Assembly (NCBI GenBank): GCA_012026835.1
Contig: VEPN01000024.1
Span: forward strand, 1-42,604
Length of the DNA stretch: 42,604 bases
Direction of reading: 5' to 3'
From: Candidatus Methanoperedens sp.
Lineage (GTDB): Archaea > Halobacteriota > Methanosarcinia > Methanosarcinales > Methanoperedenaceae
Both the position numbers and the translations under genes were made by a program. Below the pieces are notes generated by a model, which had not been told where the DNA came from, did no database searches, and worked only from the letters and a program-made list of their open reading frames with translations. Shown here piece by piece: positions 7,642 to 22,031 of this stretch. Every line of letters starts with the position of its first letter. Position 1 is the first letter of the stretch.

Positions 7642-7923
7642 TTGATAACGCATTCCAGCCGGAAAGTCAAAGAAGGAAAAATTGTAAAAGTGGAGGTTGA
7701 CTGCGAGGATGTCATTAAAAAGCTCAGGATCACAGGTGATTTCTTCCTGCATCCGGAAGATGTCCTTGATGATATTGAAAAAACCATGGTTGGCCTGAAA
7801 AAAGATGTAAGTTTTGAAACATTGGTCATCAAAATTAATGATATAGTTAAGAATAACGATGCCAGGATGATCGGCATAAGTCCTGAGTCCATCGCGGAAG
7901 TCTTGAGGGAGGCGCTAAAATGA
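7642..7923 (+). CDS. lplB: lipoate-protein ligase accessory subunit, LplA C-terminal domain (LplB)
   Basis: A 93-residue protein that matches the separate C-terminal domain of archaeal bipartite lipoate ligase, which is needed to activate lipoate and charge lipoyl domains. The start codon is TTG; a full GGAGGT five bases upstream fixes it, and no ATG lies near. Recognisable features are the EGKIVKVEVDCEDVIKKLRITGDFFLHPED segment and a C-terminal helix. It overlaps the catalytic subunit gene by four bases (ATGA). The order accessory-then-catalytic and the tight overlap support a heterodimer. Confidence 0.85.
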   Translation: MITHSSRKVKEGKIVKVEVDCEDVIKKLRITGDFFLHPEDVLDDIEKTMVGLKKDVSFETLVIKINDIVKNNDARMIGISPESIAEVLREALK

Positions 7924-8666
7924 GATGGAGAGTTATAGGGCTTGAAACCCACGATGCTTATATCAACATGGCCCTTGATGAGGCAATAAGTGAAGGTATA
8001 AGAACTGGCTCATCCCCGCCTACCATAAGGTTTTACAACTGGGAACCAGGCGCAGTTTCCATAGGTTATTTCCAGGGCATAAGGGATGAGGTCAATCTCG
8101 AAGTATGCAGGGAACTGGGCGTGGACTGTATAAGACGCTGGACAGGCGGCGGGGCGGTTTATCACGATTCTGGGGGCGAGTTAACATACAGCGTGATCGC
8201 CCCTGCCGGCGTATTCCCAAAGAATATAATTGAGTCTTACAGATTAATATGCGGATGGATAATAAGGGGTCTTGAAATCCTTGGAATTGAAGCAGAGTTC
8301 AGGCCGGTCAACGATATTCTTGTAAAGGATAAAAAAATCTCAGGAAGCGCCCAGACAAGGAGGGGAGGGATTTTATTGCAGCATGGAACCCTGCTTTACG
8401 GGCTTGACCTGAAAACGATGTTCAGCGTTCTTAATGTTAGCAGGCAGAAGATTACAGATAAGATGATCAAGAGCGCAGAGGAAAGGGTCACCTGTGTCCT
8501 GATGCACCGGGAAGCGGGCAGGGAAGAGGTTTATGAGGCTCTCCTTAAAGCTTTTACTGAGGACAAGGACTATGGGTTCGGTGCATGGAACAGGGATGAG
8601 CTTGTAAGAGCCAGGGAGCTTGCTGAAAAGAAATATAAAAGCGAGGAATGGACGTTTTTAAGATAG
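7920..8666 (+). CDS. lplA: lipoate-protein ligase A, catalytic subunit
   Basis: A 248-residue cytosolic ligase that attaches lipoate to acyl carriers such as GcvH or 2-oxoacid dehydrogenase E2. Motifs are RRWTGGGAVYHD (residues 72-83), NDILVKDKKISGSAQ (131-145) with Lys139 at the lipoyl-AMP binding position, and QHGTLLYGLD. The usual C-terminal domain is missing but is encoded by the preceding gene, as in Thermoplasma. No lipoyl-domain protein is encoded in the window. It implies use of scavenged or octanoyl-derived lipoate in this archaeon. Confidence 0.92.
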   Translation: MRWRVIGLETHDAYINMALDEAISEGIRTGSSPPTIRFYNWEPGAVSIGYFQGIRDEVNLEVCRELGVDCIRRWTGGGAVYHDSGGELTYSVIAPAGVFPKNIIESYRLICGWIIRGLEILGIEAEFRPVNDILVKDKKISGSAQTRRGGILLQHGTLLYGLDLKTMFSVLNVSRQKITDKMIKSAEERVTCVLMHREAGREEVYEALLKAFTEDKDYGFGAWNRDELVRARELAEKKYKSEEWTFLR

Positions 8667-9007
8667 AACTTATGGAGTGCGGAGGCAAAATGGAGTACTA
8701 TCGAGCTGAGAGAATATATCCAATAACGAGTTAGAGTCAAACAGTGGGCAGGAAGCGGGAGTGGAATCTGCGTTGTTTTGTTTAAAATAGATACCTGCCC
8801 ACAATGTTATTTTAACAATACATCTATTTAAAACCATTCATGTATATGAACATGAGAGCGGTGGCTGCATGAGTTACATCAAAAATAGCAGGTTAGGAAA
8901 TATTTGGTTAGTTAAAAAGGCTGCTATTGATGAGTTCAGGCGAGCGAATGCAAGGAATTAACCTGGCAAAACCGTAAGGCATAAACTTGATTATCCCCCG
9001 ACATATT
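8667..9007. other. intergenic stretch with degraded sequence
   Basis: A 341-base stretch without a convincing intact gene. It holds a 9-base inverted repeat (GTGGGCAGG at 8744-8752, CCTGCCCAC at 8794-8802, loop 41) and a fragment resembling the end of an excisionase-type DNA-binding domain (listed separately). The inverted repeat could be part of a decayed element; no terminal repeats or target duplications could be paired. Confidence 0.4.
8791..8961 (+). pseudogene. possible remnant of an excisionase/MerR-type helix-turn-helix protein
   Basis: The frame is open from just after a TAG at 8788 to the TAA at 8959-8961. An ATG at 8869 opens the last 30 codons, which read SYIKNSRLGN, IWLVKKAAIDEFRRANAR. 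This resembles the end of excisionase-family domains (recognition turn, basic strand, then 'k.a.eef' helix) with a few residues missing in the wing. The front of the domain is not recognisable. It lies near the other mobile remnants of the 9-14 kb zone. This is a weak call by pattern only; it may be chance. Confidence 0.25.
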
Positions 9008-9526
9008 ATGAATGTGGACTGGATCTCACATTTGCTGTTTGGACTTACGCTTAGTGCAATCCTGCTGAAAGACAGGTCTCGCGGAAAAATGGCACTCGTA
9101 GCAGCCGCCAGCCTGTTGCCCGATCTTGATATACTCTGGTATCATCGAAGTGGATTACATTCACCGCTGGTTTTACTCATATTAGCACTGCTACCTGCTA
9201 TCCGGAATCGTGCTTTTTTTGCTCCAATACTTACCGGTTTCCTGTCGCATTCAGCCCTTGATATCTTCCTGTTTGATAATTCTAATCACGCAATTAAAGA
9301 CCTGGCTAATCAGGTTGTAGCAAATGAAAGCATGGCTCAAAGCATTGAGGCGAGCATAACGAATTACATAGCGGCCGACGGAATCATGCTTTTCTATCCG
9401 TTCAGCAGTGAAAAATATTCCATAACCTTAAGCGAAGGAAACTATACAATTATAGCTGGTTTTATTGCAGCAGCCGCCGTATTTACCCTTGTATGGCTGT
9501 ACTTTAAGGAATACCGCAGGAGATAG
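9008..9526 (+). CDS. DUF457/YdjM-like membrane-bound metal-dependent hydrolase
   Basis: A 172-residue protein from the ATG at 9008; a TTG at 8987 would add seven residues but is not needed. It has the DUF457 pattern: an early VDWISHLLFG with His, then LLPDLDILWYHRSGLHSPL with clustered Asp and His, and GFLSHSALDIFLF. These residues probably bind metal at the membrane surface. Four or five hydrophobic segments are seen, the last just before the C-terminus. Members are annotated as inner-membrane metal-dependent hydrolases, but the substrate is not known. It converges with the S-layer gene, 18 bases apart. Confidence 0.8.
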   Translation: MNVDWISHLLFGLTLSAILLKDRSRGKMALVAAASLLPDLDILWYHRSGLHSPLVLLILALLPAIRNRAFFAPILTGFLSHSALDIFLFDNSNHAIKDLANQVVANESMAQSIEASITNYIAADGIMLFYPFSSEKYSITLSEGNYTIIAGFIAAAAVFTLVWLYFKEYRRR

Positions 9527-11507: not shown

Positions 11508-12177
11508 TTCGCATCAACATTTCAAGATGCCATTTAAACATTAAATACGTTATGTTCAAACTGGTTTATGGTGCAAGTTACAGGATTATAGGTAGTTACC
11601 AATCCATGGATTCACCATATAAGGTTATTCATTTTTTACAGCAGCAGTAGCCTTTAGTGTTCACTCCCCTGTTATTATATTAGCCAAAAAAACTATGAGG
11701 AGTAAACATTGGAATTTGATGTAGATAAACCTGTAAAAATCTATTAGAATAAATATATCGGCTTAACCGATAAAAATGAAGAAAAGTTTGTAGATGCGAC
11801 CTCAGAGCATAGTGTTTGTGCATCGAAGTTCTTGGAAGAGCTTAATCTTGATCCTATAATGCCCGAACTGAACAAGTATCATTCGGTTCCCGAAGGCAAA
11901 GAGGATTTTCCAAGAAGTGCGATGTTCAAGGCATGATCTTCAGGAAAATCAAGAAAATCAGGTACTACAAGAAGACTGAAGATTATCTCATTGACTATCC
12001 AAGAGAAGCTATAGAGCTTGATTTCAACGTCGATCAAAATGCACCTGAGTAGCTTAACAGGATTGCAGCATAGGATTGTAGAAAATCTTTCTTCAGTTGC
12101 CTATTTGACATAAGGGGTAAAAAAAGTTACCAACGATTTATAGGGGTCCTGGTAACCACCATGACTATAAAGTAATA
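11508..12177. other. 670-base intergenic stretch of mobile-element debris
   Basis: Between the VapB gene and the AT-rich membrane protein there is no intact gene. It contains the broken transposase (11709-12052). The flanks hold several copies of a short GTTACCA/GGTAACC word (about 11597, 12127 and 12151 in opposite orientations), which might be eroded ends of an insertion, but I could not pair them into convincing terminal repeats. Confidence 0.5.
11709..12052 (+). pseudogene. broken transposase, N-terminal fragment
   Basis: A decayed transposase start. From a TTG at 11709, preceded by GGAG, the frame reads EFDVDKPVKIY, meets a TAG at 11745, resumes as NKYIGLTDKNEEKF...PRSAMFKA, and then needs a one-base shift near 11930 to continue as IFRKIKKIRYYKKTEDYLIDYPREA to a TAG at 12050-12052. 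The AMFKALIFRKIK...EDYL segment is typical of the N-terminal dimerisation/HTH part of IS4- or IS5-like transposases; the exact family is not resolved. The DDE catalytic domain is absent, and terminal repeats could not be identified. Confidence 0.6.
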
Positions 12178-13515
12178 TTGTTGAAAAGTATATATATTAA
12201 TAAGTATTTTACCTTTCCTGTGGATATTCTAGATATACTAACAGTAACACTCCCAAAAGATATTTATCAATTTATCATTGTCTATGGCTTCGCATACTTT
12301 TTGTTAATCTTTTATGGAACGAAACAATGGGATAAATATTCAAGTTTTGAGAAGGTTGTTTTTTCGGTTCTATCAGGTTACGTTGTTTGGGTTTTTTTCG
12401 TTTTCCCAATTTCATTTTTTATGAATACATTGGATGTATTCCAACGTGAATTGTCAGATATAAAATATACTGACCTATATAAGTATCTGTATATATTTAA
12501 TTATATATTTGCGTATTTAATAGTATGGAGATTGCTATTTAGCAAACAACCATTAAGAGATAATAAAATTTTCTTCAAATTCACAAAGTACTTGATAACG
12601 GCAATCTTAATTATTTTTTTTATGGCGGATTACCTATATCTTGTATCGTTTACTTTTTCAGAATATCAAGAATATTTGGGTTATGCTATGTATTCTTTCT
12701 TCTATTTATTAGCTATTTCCATATTTTATTTGATTTTTTTAGAAATATATGGAGAAAAATTTATAATAATTTCCAAAATCAAAAAGGATAATTCATTTAA
12801 GAATCTCTATTGCAGGTTAATATTTTTAAAATATATTATTTTAAAACGAGAAAAAAAGATAAAGCAATTAATAGTAGGGATCTTTATTATCGTAGTCATA
12901 GCTTTCCTTTTTATAGGGTATTATTCTTTAAAAACAACCACTCAACTTGAAGAAGAAGAACCTGATAGACTTATTATTGATTCCATGTTCATTACTCGCG
13001 CAAATCGTACTGTTTCAGGGGATTTTTTTGTTAGGCAAAATTATAGTGTAAAGTTCGGAGCAATACCATGGGTAAAAATTAAGCCTAATATAACCTTAAA
13101 AAATAGCCTCGATGAACCTACAAATCTTTATCCTTTTAGGGGAGACTATTTGTTAATAAATAATTCGCGGTTTAACACGACAAATATTATTTTATATGGC
13201 AAAAAAGAAATAAGTAACTTGCCTAACTCTTATTTCTATGAATTAGAGATTAGCAGTTTAAATGATACAGTCCAAAAATGGGATATAATATTCAATAATA
13301 GCTATAATTATACTATTGAAATCAATGAGGCTATTATTGATCCCATGAGAGAGCTTAAATTTATTAATTACAGTCGTAATAATTTGAGCTTAGGCGATGT
13401 TATTAATGAAGACCAAAGAATAATTATCAGACGTGTATGGATTGCACCAGATCTTTCAAAGATTTATTCAAATCGGTCAATTTCCTTATTTTTTGAGAGT
13501 AAAAATACAGATTAG
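12178..13515 (+). CDS. AT-rich, sequon-rich membrane protein of unknown function
   Basis: A 445-residue protein not assigned to any family. It has about six hydrophobic segments (roughly residues 31-47, 60-81, 104-120, 137-156, 168-190 and 230-248), then a soluble C-terminal domain of about 190 residues with eleven N-x-S/T sequons, so the C-terminal part is probably outside the cell and N-glycosylated. The start is one of two tandem TTG codons (12178 or 12181) without a ribosome site. Base composition is far more AT-rich than the neighbours, and it lies between a broken transposase and a broken integrase. It is probably transferred cargo of a mobile element. Confidence 0.7.
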   Translation: MLKSIYINKYFTFPVDILDILTVTLPKDIYQFIIVYGFAYFLLIFYGTKQWDKYSSFEKVVFSVLSGYVVWVFFVFPISFFMNTLDVFQRELSDIKYTDLYKYLYIFNYIFAYLIVWRLLFSKQPLRDNKIFFKFTKYLITAILIIFFMADYLYLVSFTFSEYQEYLGYAMYSFFYLLAISIFYLIFLEIYGEKFIIISKIKKDNSFKNLYCRLIFLKYIILKREKKIKQLIVGIFIIVVIAFLFIGYYSLKTTTQLEEEEPDRLIIDSMFITRANRTVSGDFFVRQNYSVKFGAIPWVKIKPNITLKNSLDEPTNLYPFRGDYLLINNSRFNTTNIILYGKKEISNLPNSYFYELEISSLNDTVQKWDIIFNNSYNYTIEINEAIIDPMRELKFINYSRNNLSLGDVINEDQRIIIRRVWIAPDLSKIYSNRSISLFFESKNTD

Positions 13516-13524
13516 AGAACTTGA

Positions 13525-13746
13525 TTAGTTAAAATACCTTAAGTTCGCCTTATCATAAATCTCCTTCAGCACTTCAGGGCTGAAATCACTGTAATGCCTT
13601 GCCAGCACACTTTGCGGCACCCTGCCGCAAAAGGCATCAACATACCTATCCCGCTTGGCCCTCAAAAGTTTACCGCCTCTTAATCCTGATGAAGCAAGTG
13701 GAATACAACTCAATAAGCCATTTAAAAAACTGATAACAACAGTAAC
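13525..13746 (-). pseudogene. tyrosine integrase remnant, internally deleted, adjoining tRNA-Lys
   Basis: The frame (open into the tRNA) reads PLASSGLRGGKLL, which matches the box I region with the catalytic Arg of archaeal tyrosine integrases, then jumps directly to DRYVDAFCGRVPQSVLARHY and SDFSPEVLKEIYDKANL, the C-terminal end of archaeal integrases with the HY of the catalytic site. The 80-100 residues normally between these blocks are gone and so is the N-terminal half. It starts exactly where the tRNA gene ends and points away from it. This is the scar of an element integrated at the tRNA 3' end. It is not a functional recombinase. Confidence 0.75.
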
Positions 13747-13819
13747 GGGCTGGGAGGGATTTGAACCCACGGCCGTCGGATTAAGAGTCCGACGCTCTGC
13801 CTGTCTAAGCTACCAGCCC
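13746..13819 (-). tRNA. tRNA-Lys (anticodon CUU)
   Basis: On the minus strand the sequence folds as a cloverleaf: acceptor GGGCTGG/CCAGCCC, D arm GCTT...GAGC, anticodon stem TCGGA/TCCGA with loop CTCTTAA giving anticodon CUU (lysine), five-base variable loop, and T arm with TTCAAAT loop. The discriminator base is G, as expected for archaeal tRNA-Lys, and CCA is not encoded. There is no intron. The T stem has one U-U mismatch (positions 50-64). The 3' end adjoins an integrase remnant, so it is the attachment site of a past element. A TATA-like TGTATATATC lies about 35 bases upstream. Confidence 0.92.
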
Positions 13820-13871
13820 ATCAAAGGCTTTCTCCTAATAATACTCTCCCGATATATACATTTCGAATCCT

Positions 13872-20027: not shown

Positions 20028-20732
20028 ATGAAACTACTCGTAAGCCCCATCAATGTTGAAGAAGCAAAAATCTCAAGGCTTGGCGGCGCGGATATCATCG
20101 ATGTGAAAAACCCAAAAGAAGGCTCACTCGGTGCAAATTTCCCATGGATGATAACGGCTGTAAAAAAGGCGGCAGGAACTACTCCTGTAAGTGCTACCAT
20201 AGGCGATTTTAATTATAAACCCGGAACAGCCTCACTTGCTGCATTGGGTGCGGCTGTGGCAGGGGCTGAATATATCAAAGTGGGATTATACGATATCCAG
20301 ACAAAGGAGCAGGCCTTTGACATGCTGGTAAATATCGTCCGCTCTGTAAAAGATTACGACAGGAATAAAAAGGTCGTGGCCTCAGGTTATTCGGATTACC
20401 GGCGGATCAATTCCATATCGCCTTTTGAGCTTCCTGAAATCGGTGCAAAAGCCGGCGTGGATGTAGTTATGATGGATACTGGTATCAAGGATGGCCGTTC
20501 GACGTTTGAGTTCCTGAATGAGCAGGAGCTTACCGTGTTTGTCAAAGACGCAAAAAAGCACGGACTTAAGACGGCCCTGGCTGGAACGATTAAGTTTGAA
20601 GACATTGCGGCCCTCAAACGTATCTCCCCGGATATCATTGGGGTCAGGGGCTGTGTTTGCGGCGGGGATCGGAATTCATCCATCAAGCAGGAACTTGTTG
20701 AGAAGTTAAAAAAAGAGATTAACCAGGCATAG
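20028..20732 (+). CDS. mfnB: (5-formylfuran-3-yl)methyl phosphate synthase, methanofuran biosynthesis
   Basis: A 234-residue TIM-barrel enzyme that makes the furan ring of methanofuran from two glyceraldehyde-3-phosphate molecules. The Schiff-base lysine is Lys27 in IIDVKNPKEGSLGA, next to Asp25, and a second active-site lysine is Lys84 in EYIKVGLYD. The VVMMDTG and GVRGCVCGGDR phosphate-site blocks are intact. Presence of this gene ties the organism to a methanofuran-dependent C1 pathway. A TATA-like CATAAATGTATA about 30 bases upstream suggests a very short leader. No other mfn gene is in the window except possibly the HisA-like gene. Confidence 0.93.
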   Translation: MKLLVSPINVEEAKISRLGGADIIDVKNPKEGSLGANFPWMITAVKKAAGTTPVSATIGDFNYKPGTASLAALGAAVAGAEYIKVGLYDIQTKEQAFDMLVNIVRSVKDYDRNKKVVASGYSDYRRINSISPFELPEIGAKAGVDVVMMDTGIKDGRSTFEFLNEQELTVFVKDAKKHGLKTALAGTIKFEDIAALKRISPDIIGVRGCVCGGDRNSSIKQELVEKLKKEINQA

Positions 20733-20846
20733 TCGCAAAGTTTTTTATACATGTTTGCCAGTGATATTTTTTGGATGAGGCCGGATAATACATCTCTCCT
20801 ACTTTTTTTCTGGCACCAGTACTTGGGTCAAGTTTGGGAAAAAGCA

Positions 20847-20854
20847 TTTAAATA
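20847..20854 (+). promoter_or_regulatory. TATA box for candidate ncRNA
   Basis: TTTAAATA is a consensus archaeal TATA box, preceded by an A/G-rich BRE-like AAAAAGCA. There is no ORF downstream on this strand; the predicted start near 20873-20877 falls at the left arm of the hairpin. Confidence 0.5.
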
Positions 20855-20861
20855 GTAAAGA

Positions 20862-20995
20862 AAAAGAGTAACCTTTGCAGAAAAGAAAAAAGTAGGTGGG
20901 TTGGGGAGTGGTGGATCTTCTCATGCAAAGGTAACCTCTTTCTTCATATTTATGATATAAAAACTTTTTGATGGAAGTTCAGGGATTTTTTTTTC
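20862..20995 (+). ncRNA. candidate structured non-coding RNA
   Basis: ACCTTTGCA (20871-20879) pairs perfectly with TGCAAAGGT (20924-20932), enclosing a purine/GU-rich loop with GTAGGTGGG, TTGGGGAGTGG and GATCTTCTC. A second pairing AAAGAG with CTCTTT (about 20862-20868 with 20936-20941) extends the stem across a small asymmetric loop. A consensus TATA box sits 20-25 bases before the left arm, and T-rich runs at 20965-20970 and 20986-20994 could end the transcript. It matches no RNA class I know (not tRNA, C/D, SRP or RNase P). The strand is inferred from the promoter. Confidence 0.4.
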
Positions 20996-21053: not shown

Positions 21054-22031
21054 TTAAATGTTTTCCTCTTTTTCCTTTACGCGCCCTGCCATCCATATCA
21101 AAAACAGGGCCGCAACAATGCCTACAAGAGTCATCCCTCCTGTATTATCGGGCCGGTTTTTATCCAGTTCCTGAAGCGGTGCAAGCAGGATAAAGAAACC
21201 AAGAGCCCCTGATGCCAGTGCCAGTTGATGTCTTTTTGACCATGCTGCACCGTTGCCTGACATCTTCAATACCTTCAGGCTTACCAGTATGACAGGCCCT
21301 ATCACCAGAAGTATGGTCAACAAAGGATGAAGCCCGGTGTTAGGCAAAGACCAGCTAATAAAAAAGAAAGAAAAGGTCGAAAGGAAACCTGCAACTACAA
21401 ACCAGCGGGAGCTGGGGACGCTTATGTTTTTGGGGATAAATAATGTATCTGGCAGCCGCCTCGCCAGCTTAATCAGCCCAGATACAATTATAATTGTCAG
21501 GAGATAGTGAACTAACGGCGGCCTGTACGGGGTAATAAATAGGAAACCAAAAATCACAACCGCGACCATCAATATACATAGTTTTCTGAAAGTTCGCGTG
21601 CTGACCCATGGTTCAGATTGTCGCATCGGGAACATCAAACCTGCCAGAAGGATAGGGATTGCAATACTGAAAACAGTATGGTATATGGTAAGTTGCAGGC
21701 TCCACACCCAGTTGATGCCAGCCCACCTGCCATAACTGCCCAGGATACCGAGATCAATCCAGCCGGGATCAAAAAAGCTTTTAACCATTAATCCTTCCTC
21801 AATGATCCCGTACGCTGCACCCAGTACCAGCAGTGTGGCCCAGCCCTTCCCCCACCGAAAAGTCAGCTCACGGGCTATTATGGCACCGCTTCCATACAAG
21901 GCCGCCAGTAATAAAAAGACAACGGGATTGAAGAACTCAGCAGGCGGCGATGAACCCGACAGTAACTCGCCAACCATCGGTGACAGGAAGAATAGTACCA
22001 GCGCCGGAGATAATATCTTTTGTTTTAGCAT
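21054..22031 (-). CDS. polytopic membrane protein, unknown function
   Basis: A 325-residue protein with about nine or ten hydrophobic segments. A possible functional site is IIEEGLMVKSFFDPGW near residues 76-91 with a Glu pair, followed by QLTIYHTVFSIAI near 113-125. The EE and H spacing is loosely like CPBP intramembrane proteases but the order and spacing do not fit well, so I do not assign it. The C-terminal tail is charged and probably cytoplasmic. It stands alone between the candidate RNA and the Nif3 gene and is transcribed divergently from Nif3. Confidence 0.75.
   Translation of the reverse strand: MLKQKILSPALVLFFLSPMVGELLSGSSPPAEFFNPVVFLLLAALYGSGAIIARELTFRWGKGWATLLVLGAAYGIIEEGLMVKSFFDPGWIDLGILGSYGRWAGINWVWSLQLTIYHTVFSIAIPILLAGLMFPMRQSEPWVSTRTFRKLCILMVAVVIFGFLFITPYRPPLVHYLLTIIIVSGLIKLARRLPDTLFIPKNISVPSSRWFVVAGFLSTFSFFFISWSLPNTGLHPLLTILLVIGPVILVSLKVLKMSGNGAAWSKRHQLALASGALGFFILLAPLQELDKNRPDNTGGMTLVGIVAALFLIWMAGRVKEKEENI

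What the first reader, a model, noticed from the sequence alone, without database searches (positions are those of the whole stretch)
20847..20995. Orphan promoter driving a stem-loop RNA with no ORF
A consensus TATA box precedes a 9-base perfect stem (extendable by six pairs) closing a 44-base purine/GU-rich loop, with T-rich ends and no coding capacity. It fits no RNA class I can recognise.
Basis: partly seen in the sequence, partly recalled or inferred. Interest (0 to 1): 0.6.

Follow-up and report, generated by a model that had tools for sequence, protein, structure and literature searches.

The report
C-rich hairpin sRNA in methane-oxidising archaea
The hairpin is real and conserved, but the RNA is made from the opposite strand to the one proposed: it belongs to an uncatalogued set of small regulatory-type RNAs in Methanoperedens, archaea that eat methane, with related hairpins across their whole order.

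Summary
Observation confirmed, interpretation partly supported. The TATA box, 9-bp stem and 43-nt G-rich loop are present, non-coding and conserved: relatives occur in 27 of 31 genomes of the genus, and a search of 84,980 species found the upstream element only in Ca. Methanoperedens and close relatives.

The structured RNA is on the minus strand. Across 26 homologues the stem holds 97.7% of pairs with compensatory changes. Its wobble pairs are G-U on the minus strand (18 versus 1 the other way). Only the minus strand has a TATA box the right distance (28-31 nt) from the stem base. The minus RNA (about 20932 to 20871) is a hairpin with a C-rich, U-tract loop.

The genome holds a second hairpin family with the same C-rich core: 14 copies in this genome, one of them in this window, and present in 31/31 genus and 106/120 order genomes. 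Rfam has none.

It probably drives a short G-rich antisense RNA.

Most likely function: sRNAs that base-pair with G-rich mRNA sites such as ribosome-binding sites, titrated by the G-rich RNA. Transcription, targets and mechanism are inferred.

The parts
20871..20932 (-). Type I hairpin sRNA (core): 5' arm ACCUUUGCA(U) at 20932-20923, 3' arm (C)UGCAAAGGU at 20880-20871; predicted 5' end at about 20932
   Evidence: 26-sequence alignment, 97.7% of stem cells paired, compensatory changes, G-U on this strand; minus fold z -6.4
20892..20917 (-). C-rich loop core GAUCCACCACUCCCCAACCCACCUAC (proposed seed); its CCACUCCCCAACC is shared with the best type II hairpins of the genome
20880..20892 (-). U-rich tract of the loop (CUUUUUUCUUUUC); candidate Sm/Lsm-type binding site (inference)
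20954..20971 (-). Minus-strand promoter TCAAAAAGTTTTTATATC: BRE-like A tract plus TATA box (TTTATATC 20961-20954), 29 nt from the stem base
   Evidence: conserved as TCAAAAAGTCTTTATA; spacing 28-31 nt in 27 of 28 homologues; sequence
20822..20842 (+). Upstream element CTTGGGTCAAGTTTGGGAAAA: two imperfect 11-bp direct repeats (CTTGGGTCAAG / TTTGGGAAAA), proposed activator site
   Evidence: found only in Ca. Methanoperedens and close relatives among 84,980 species; at most six per genome
20847..20854 (+).
20877..20946 (+). Predicted G-rich antisense RNA (start about 20877, 3' end unknown); G-rich core 20892-20917 GUAGGUGGGUUGGGGAGUGGUGGAUC, complementary to the sRNA loop
   Evidence: TATA to G-rich core 41-58 nt in both class A and class B loci, including loci without the hairpin; 13-nt perfect match to type II loops
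8741..8805 (-). Sister type II hairpin sRNA in the same window: GUGGGCAGG..CCUGCCCAC, loop with UUCCACUCCC
   Evidence: model R2, E 1.2e-5, not in the training set; stem and fold
8824..8833 (-). TATA box TTTTAAATAG of the sister hairpin, 31 nt from its stem

Best explanation
The locus carries two overlapping, oppositely transcribed non-coding RNA genes. (1) The minus strand makes a hairpin sRNA of about 62 nt or more, starting at its stem base, that presents a C-rich seed (CCACCACUCCCCAACCCACC) and a U tract in a large loop. (2) The plus strand, from a promoter with its own upstream element, makes a short G-rich RNA complementary to that loop. The hairpin is one of a large set of C-rich-loop hairpins (about 15 in this genome), many of which share the core CCACUCCCC(AACC). 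Proposed mechanism: the hairpins act in trans by pairing their C-rich loops with G-rich mRNA sites, chiefly ribosome-binding sites, and the G-rich RNA titrates or destroys them as an antisense or sponge RNA. Shown here by comparison: the hairpin, its strand, the promoters' positions, the distribution, the shared core and the complementarity. Inferred: transcription itself, mRNA targets, RBS masking, the sponge role, and a role for SmAP/Lsm at the U tract.
For: Stem 97.7% paired with 14 double-changed cells. Wobbles 18 G-U versus 1 A-C on the minus strand, 15 versus 1 after merging close relatives. Minus TATA to stem 28-31 nt in 27/28; plus 21-25 nt in 25/28; in Methanolobus psychrophilus BRE/TATA elements lie about 19-22 nt from the TSS (PMC5378194), which puts the minus start at the stem base. 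Minus strand more stable relative to shuffles in 28/28, mean z -5.2 versus -1.8. The two units are lost independently: type Ib hairpins keep stem and minus TATA but lack the plus element, while class B loci keep the plus element and G-rich core but lack the hairpin. Type II: 31/31 genus genomes, 5-28 copies, and 106/120 order genomes, mostly with a TATA about 30 nt upstream in the cases read. The window's G-rich RNA matches four G000 type II loops over 13 nt. RBS masking is an established sRNA mechanism in the same order (sRNA41, sRNA154, sRNA162 of M. mazei: PMC5867862, PMC6560208, PMC3510493).
Against: No expression data were available. The C-rich loop pairs best near start codons, but a reversed loop does so equally well, so no target specificity is shown. 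The 9-nt complement GGGGAGTGG next to ATG is not enriched in G000: its only hit is the locus itself. G-rich RNAs do not pair better with their own neighbouring hairpin than with others. A sponge role is therefore plausible only.
Confidence: 0.62

Rival explanations
1. One reading: the plus-strand promoter at 20847 drives a plus-strand stem-loop RNA with a G-rich loop, which is the functional molecule.
For: The plus promoter and upstream element are conserved, and the G-rich core stays 41-58 nt behind the plus TATA even where the hairpin is gone.
Against: TATA to stem spacing of 21-25 nt puts the start inside the 5' arm; wobble pairs are G-U on the minus strand almost only; plus fold z -0.7; type Ib hairpins keep the stem without any plus promoter.
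Confidence: 0.1
2. Only the minus hairpin RNA is functional; the conserved plus element is its 3' part or terminator (minus UAUUUAAAUNNUUUUCCCAAACUUUACCC) rather than a promoter.
For: The block lies just downstream of the minus hairpin and contains U runs.
Against: Class B loci have the same block plus TATA followed by a G-rich segment and no minus type I hairpin; type Ib hairpins lack the block.
Confidence: 0.15
3. A mobile or selfish repeat (MITE-like) whose hairpin and promoters are structural leftovers.
For: Several dispersed copies per genome (up to 7 type I and 28 type II matches) and some tandem type II copies.
Against: No terminal inverted repeats at the ends of the conserved block were seen; stems diverge with compensatory change; some sites are shared between species (for example the aminopeptidase-like or BtuR/hydantoinase-like neighbours of L006, L008, L009 and L024); order-wide conservation of type II.
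Confidence: 0.08
4. A DNA-level element: the inverted repeat is a binding site or recombination/replication signal, not an RNA.
For: Inverted repeats and a G-rich strand can act as DNA.
Against: The G-U bias is expected of RNA pairing and has no meaning in duplex DNA; TATA-to-stem spacing is fixed on one strand.
Confidence: 0.05

Closest known systems
Methanosarcina mazei sRNA41 (Buddeweg et al. 2018)
   Same: Intergenic sRNA in the same order that masks ribosome-binding sites in polycistronic mRNAs (PMC5867862, PMC6560208). Type II hairpins with a duplicated ACCCCCCACUCCCC core exist in the large-genome g19/g20 genomes, likely Methanosarcina.
   Different: No overlapping G-rich antisense gene is described in the papers read. 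Type I was not found convincingly outside the genus.
Methanosarcina mazei sRNA162 and sRNA154
   Same: Intergenic sRNAs that mask RBSs; sRNA162 lies next to an ArsR-family regulator gene and overlaps a neighbouring transcript in antisense (PMC3510493). Half of the type I loci lie next to a PAS-ArsR regulator gene.
   Different: sRNA162 is 191 nt with three stem-loops and a single-stranded linker seed, found only in Methanosarcina; type I is a single hairpin with a loop seed.
Nine conserved cold-induced sRNAs with an upstream 'cold box' in Methanolobus psychrophilus (PMC5378194)
   Same: A set of conserved sRNAs sharing a motif upstream of their promoters; mutual antisense sRNAs in one intergenic region are reported too.
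Bacterial sibling sRNAs with C-rich loops (e.g. 6C RNA, cuckoo/CcsR RNAs) and sponge RNAs (from memory)
   Same: Multi-copy hairpins exposing C-rich seeds that can pair with G-rich ribosome-binding sites; counteracted by antisense or sponge RNAs.
   Different: No homology: Rfam scan finds nothing; archaeal promoters; the loop itself carries the U tract.

Membership tests
Any Rfam 15 family (including 6C RNA) | Covariance-model match | tested here: not met
   No match at gathering score in this region of the window; no match up to E=1 in six loci with members of the hairpin types
tRNA / tmRNA | ARAGORN match | tested here: not met
   Only tRNA-Lys at 13745-13820
Type I hairpin family defined here (model R1) | 10-bp stem RCCUUUGCAG/CUGCAAAGGY, C-rich then U-rich loop, minus TATA 28-31 nt upstream | tested here: met
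   72.4 bits, E 3.4e-16 (the window copy is in the training set); spacing 29 nt
Type II hairpin family defined here (model R2) | 9-bp stem AUGGGCAGG/CCUGCCCAU with U-tract then C-rich loop | tested here: not met
   R2 does not list 20868-20935 at E<=1 but does list window 8741-8805 at E 1.2e-5
M. mazei sRNA41 | Sequence and genomic neighbours of the published gene | not testable with these tools
   Paper not held
M. mazei sRNA41 | Masks RBSs of ACDS mRNA | not tested
   No experiment; only a general G-rich RBS pairing test, not specific
RBS-masking trans-acting sRNA | Loop pairs specifically with ribosome-binding sites | tested here: inconclusive
   Best upstream pairing near -12 to -4, but a reversed loop does the same
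sRNA/sponge pair | Second RNA complementary to the seed | tested here: met
   Antisense at the locus; 13-nt perfect match to four type II loops
sRNA/sponge pair | Both RNAs expressed and abundance of one lowers the other | not testable with these tools
   Needs RNA-seq and genetics
MITE | Terminal inverted repeats and target-site duplication | tested here: inconclusive
   None apparent on reading the ends of the conserved block; empty sites not searched

The most novel reading that the evidence does not exclude
A genus-wide post-transcriptional network in anaerobic methane-oxidising archaea: about 5 to 30 sibling hairpin sRNAs per genome sharing one C-rich seed core, controlled together by one to six G-rich antisense RNAs made from a promoter with a dedicated upstream element, often next to a PAS-ArsR sensor-regulator that may read the cell's redox or energy state.
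Probability: 0.25. Interest if true: 0.85.

Novelty: new variant of a known kind. Interest (0 to 1): 0.6.

Why it matters
The text searches made here found no regulatory RNA described for Methanoperedens, archaea that oxidise methane without oxygen, and Rfam has no model for these hairpins. Type II hairpins occur across nearly the whole order, including what are probably cultured, genetically tractable Methanosarcina, so function can be tested there. The type I locus, with an sRNA and its complement made from opposite strands of one 150-bp stretch, is a compact case for asking whether archaea use antisense sponges to control sRNA families.

Tried and rejected
Plus-strand RNA as the main product: rejected by wobble strand, promoter spacing, z-scores. 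Known RNA class: Rfam at gathering and E<=1, ARAGORN, none. Small peptide on either strand: no ORF of 60 aa or more between 20753 and 21053; tiny frames noticed in the window copy (minus MKKEVTFA, plus VDLLMQR) are not present in the homologues checked by eye. Type I outside the genus: six weak R1 hits (E 5e-5 to 0.01) were read and look like chance hits without a TATA at the right place. Targets: 17-nt G-rich complement in the own genome finds mainly sister hairpins; 9-nt complement beside ATG not enriched in G000; start-codon duplex scan not specific. Co-evolution of G-rich RNA with its neighbouring hairpin: not seen. A first pattern for type II with too short a loop found one copy only and was replaced by a model. 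Viral contigs: no exact match to the 24-nt core.

Full report
What was claimed and what is there. The sequence bears this out: TTTAAATA at 20847-20854, a perfect 9-bp stem (20872-20880 with 20924-20932), a 43-nt G-rich loop, T-rich flanks. No ORF of 60 aa or more lies between 20753 and 21053. The left neighbour is MfnB (20028-20732, 4-HFC-P synthase family PF04476; an overlapping minus frame runs to 20752), the right one an unassigned 325-aa gene (21054-22031, minus).

The source. The upstream element, searched in 84,980 species, hits 23 contigs. All are Candidatus Methanoperedens or Methanoperedenaceae, or archaeal MAGs labelled Methanosarcinales or uncultured whose contigs match genomes of the window's genus. 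The window is therefore from a Methanoperedens genome, of 3.3 Mb in 116 contigs.

Conservation. BLAST of the intergenic stretch finds relatives in 27 of 31 genomes of the genus, best E 1.9e-59, often several copies. The conserved block runs from an upstream element TTTGGGTAAAGTTYGGGAAAA, through a plus TATA, the stem RCCTTTGCAG, a G-rich loop TAGGTGGGTTGGGGAGTGGTGGTATC, the second arm, and ends at ATAATATAAAGACTTTTTGA, which read on the other strand is TCAAAAAGTCTTTATA, a BRE/TATA-like promoter.

Which strand. Four lines agree on minus. (a) In 26 aligned homologues the ten pairs are standard in 97.7% of cells, with 14 double-changed cells in 3 pairs; 0 of 500 shuffles reach the observed covariation score. 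The 18 wobble cells are G-U as read on minus, against 1 A-C cell that would be a wobble on plus; 15 against 1 when near-identical copies are merged. (b) The minus TATA lies 28-31 nt from the stem base in 27 of 28 copies, the plus TATA 21-25 nt in 25 of 28. In the related Methanolobus psychrophilus BRE/TATA elements lie about 19-22 nt from mapped starts (PMC5378194), so an 8-nt box starting 28-31 nt upstream puts the minus start at the stem base and the plus start inside the 5' arm. (c) The minus strand folds better relative to shuffles in 28 of 28 (mean z -5.2 versus -1.8). (d) A subfamily (type Ib, loops with CCUAUCC) keeps stem and minus TATA without any plus element.

The second transcript. 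The plus promoter is nevertheless probably real. In class B loci the same element and TATA are followed, about 30 nt on, by GGTGGTATTGAAATAAGC and the G-rich core, with no type I hairpin. The distance from plus TATA to G-rich core is 41-58 nt in class A, class B and plus-only loci where it could be measured. Minus-only and plus-only loci both exist, so the two units are kept separately. In four class B loci (L048, L054, L057, L078) a same-strand type II hairpin with a complementary loop follows at once.

A second hairpin family. Searching the own genome for the G-rich core turned up further hairpins: stem AUGGGCAGG/CCUGCCCAU, loop CUUUUUU..CUAACCCCCACUCCCCAA, TATA about 30 nt upstream. A covariance model of ten of them (R2; 98.9% paired, 3 pairs with double changes) finds 14 copies in this genome at E<0.01, including one in this window at 8741-8805 minus with its own TATA at 8833. 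It finds 5-28 copies in each of 31 genus genomes and at least one in 106 of 120 genomes of the order, 19 of 21 genera. The distant copies read by eye mostly have a TATA about 30 nt upstream. A sub-group in this genome has a palindrome close to GTTCGTATATATACGAAC between TATA and start. Rfam knows none of them.

Function. The window's G-rich RNA pairs over 13 perfect bases (GGTTGGGGAGTGG) with four type II loops of the same genome, more stably than shuffled hairpins, so cross-talk in trans is possible. Targets of the hairpins are unresolved. C-rich loops pair better just upstream of start codons than further upstream, but a reversed loop does too, and the 9-nt complement beside ATG is not enriched in this genome. 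RBS masking is the established mechanism of M. mazei sRNA41, sRNA154 and sRNA162 (PMC5867862, PMC6560208, PMC3510493) and is the best guess here. Half of the type I loci (18 of 36) have a gene with PAS domains and an ArsR-type winged helix close by, just upstream of the hairpin on its strand in the cases read; only 3 of 43 type II loci do, and these neighbour class B elements. In this window that gene is absent.

Verdict.

Noticed in passing
window 8741-8805 (minus), TATA 8833-8824: A type II C-rich-loop hairpin between a lipoate-protein ligase gene (7920-8666) and a YdjM-like gene (8987-9526); R2 E 1.2e-5, not in the training set.
   Followed up: yes
L185, L186, L188, L190, L191, L192 (G000 loci): Six sRNA promoters of the own genome carry a palindrome close to GTTCGTATATATACGAAC between TATA box and predicted start: a likely repressor operator shared by one sub-group of the hairpins.
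   Followed up: partly
L003, L010, L012, L013, L033 and 13 other type I loci: A PAS/ArsR-type winged-helix regulator gene lies next to the type I hairpin, just upstream on its strand in the cases read; candidate binder of the TTTGGGTAAAGTTTGGGAAAA element.
   Followed up: partly
L020 (minus), L050 (minus), L054 (plus), L051, L056: A third hairpin type (stem like GAGGAACGAAC..GTTTGTTCCTC, loop with CCTATCC) is transcribed divergently from, or in place of, the G-rich element, with a related promoter motif TTTGGGTATAATCTTGGAAAA.
   Followed up: partly
L228-L230, L232, L233: In the large-genome g19/g20 genomes (likely Methanosarcina) the type II hairpin has a duplicated ACCCCCCACUCCCC core; in those read for genes it lies beside an MFS transporter gene and often a membrane pyrophosphatase gene.
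   Followed up: partly
L182 (G000:C72): A type II hairpin with its own TATA lies between two genes of what looks like a succinate dehydrogenase/fumarate reductase operon, on the coding strand (judged from the protein sequences).
   Followed up: no
L186 (G000:C53:79461-79515): A hairpin lies about 550 nt upstream of a carbon monoxide dehydrogenase-like gene (judged from its sequence), of interest because M. mazei sRNA41 acts on the ACDS genes.
   Followed up: no
window 12178-13515 (plus): A 445-aa ORF of unusually low G+C (27.8% in 12001-13000) with no Pfam match, close to tRNA-Lys (13745-13820): possible recent acquisition.
   Followed up: no
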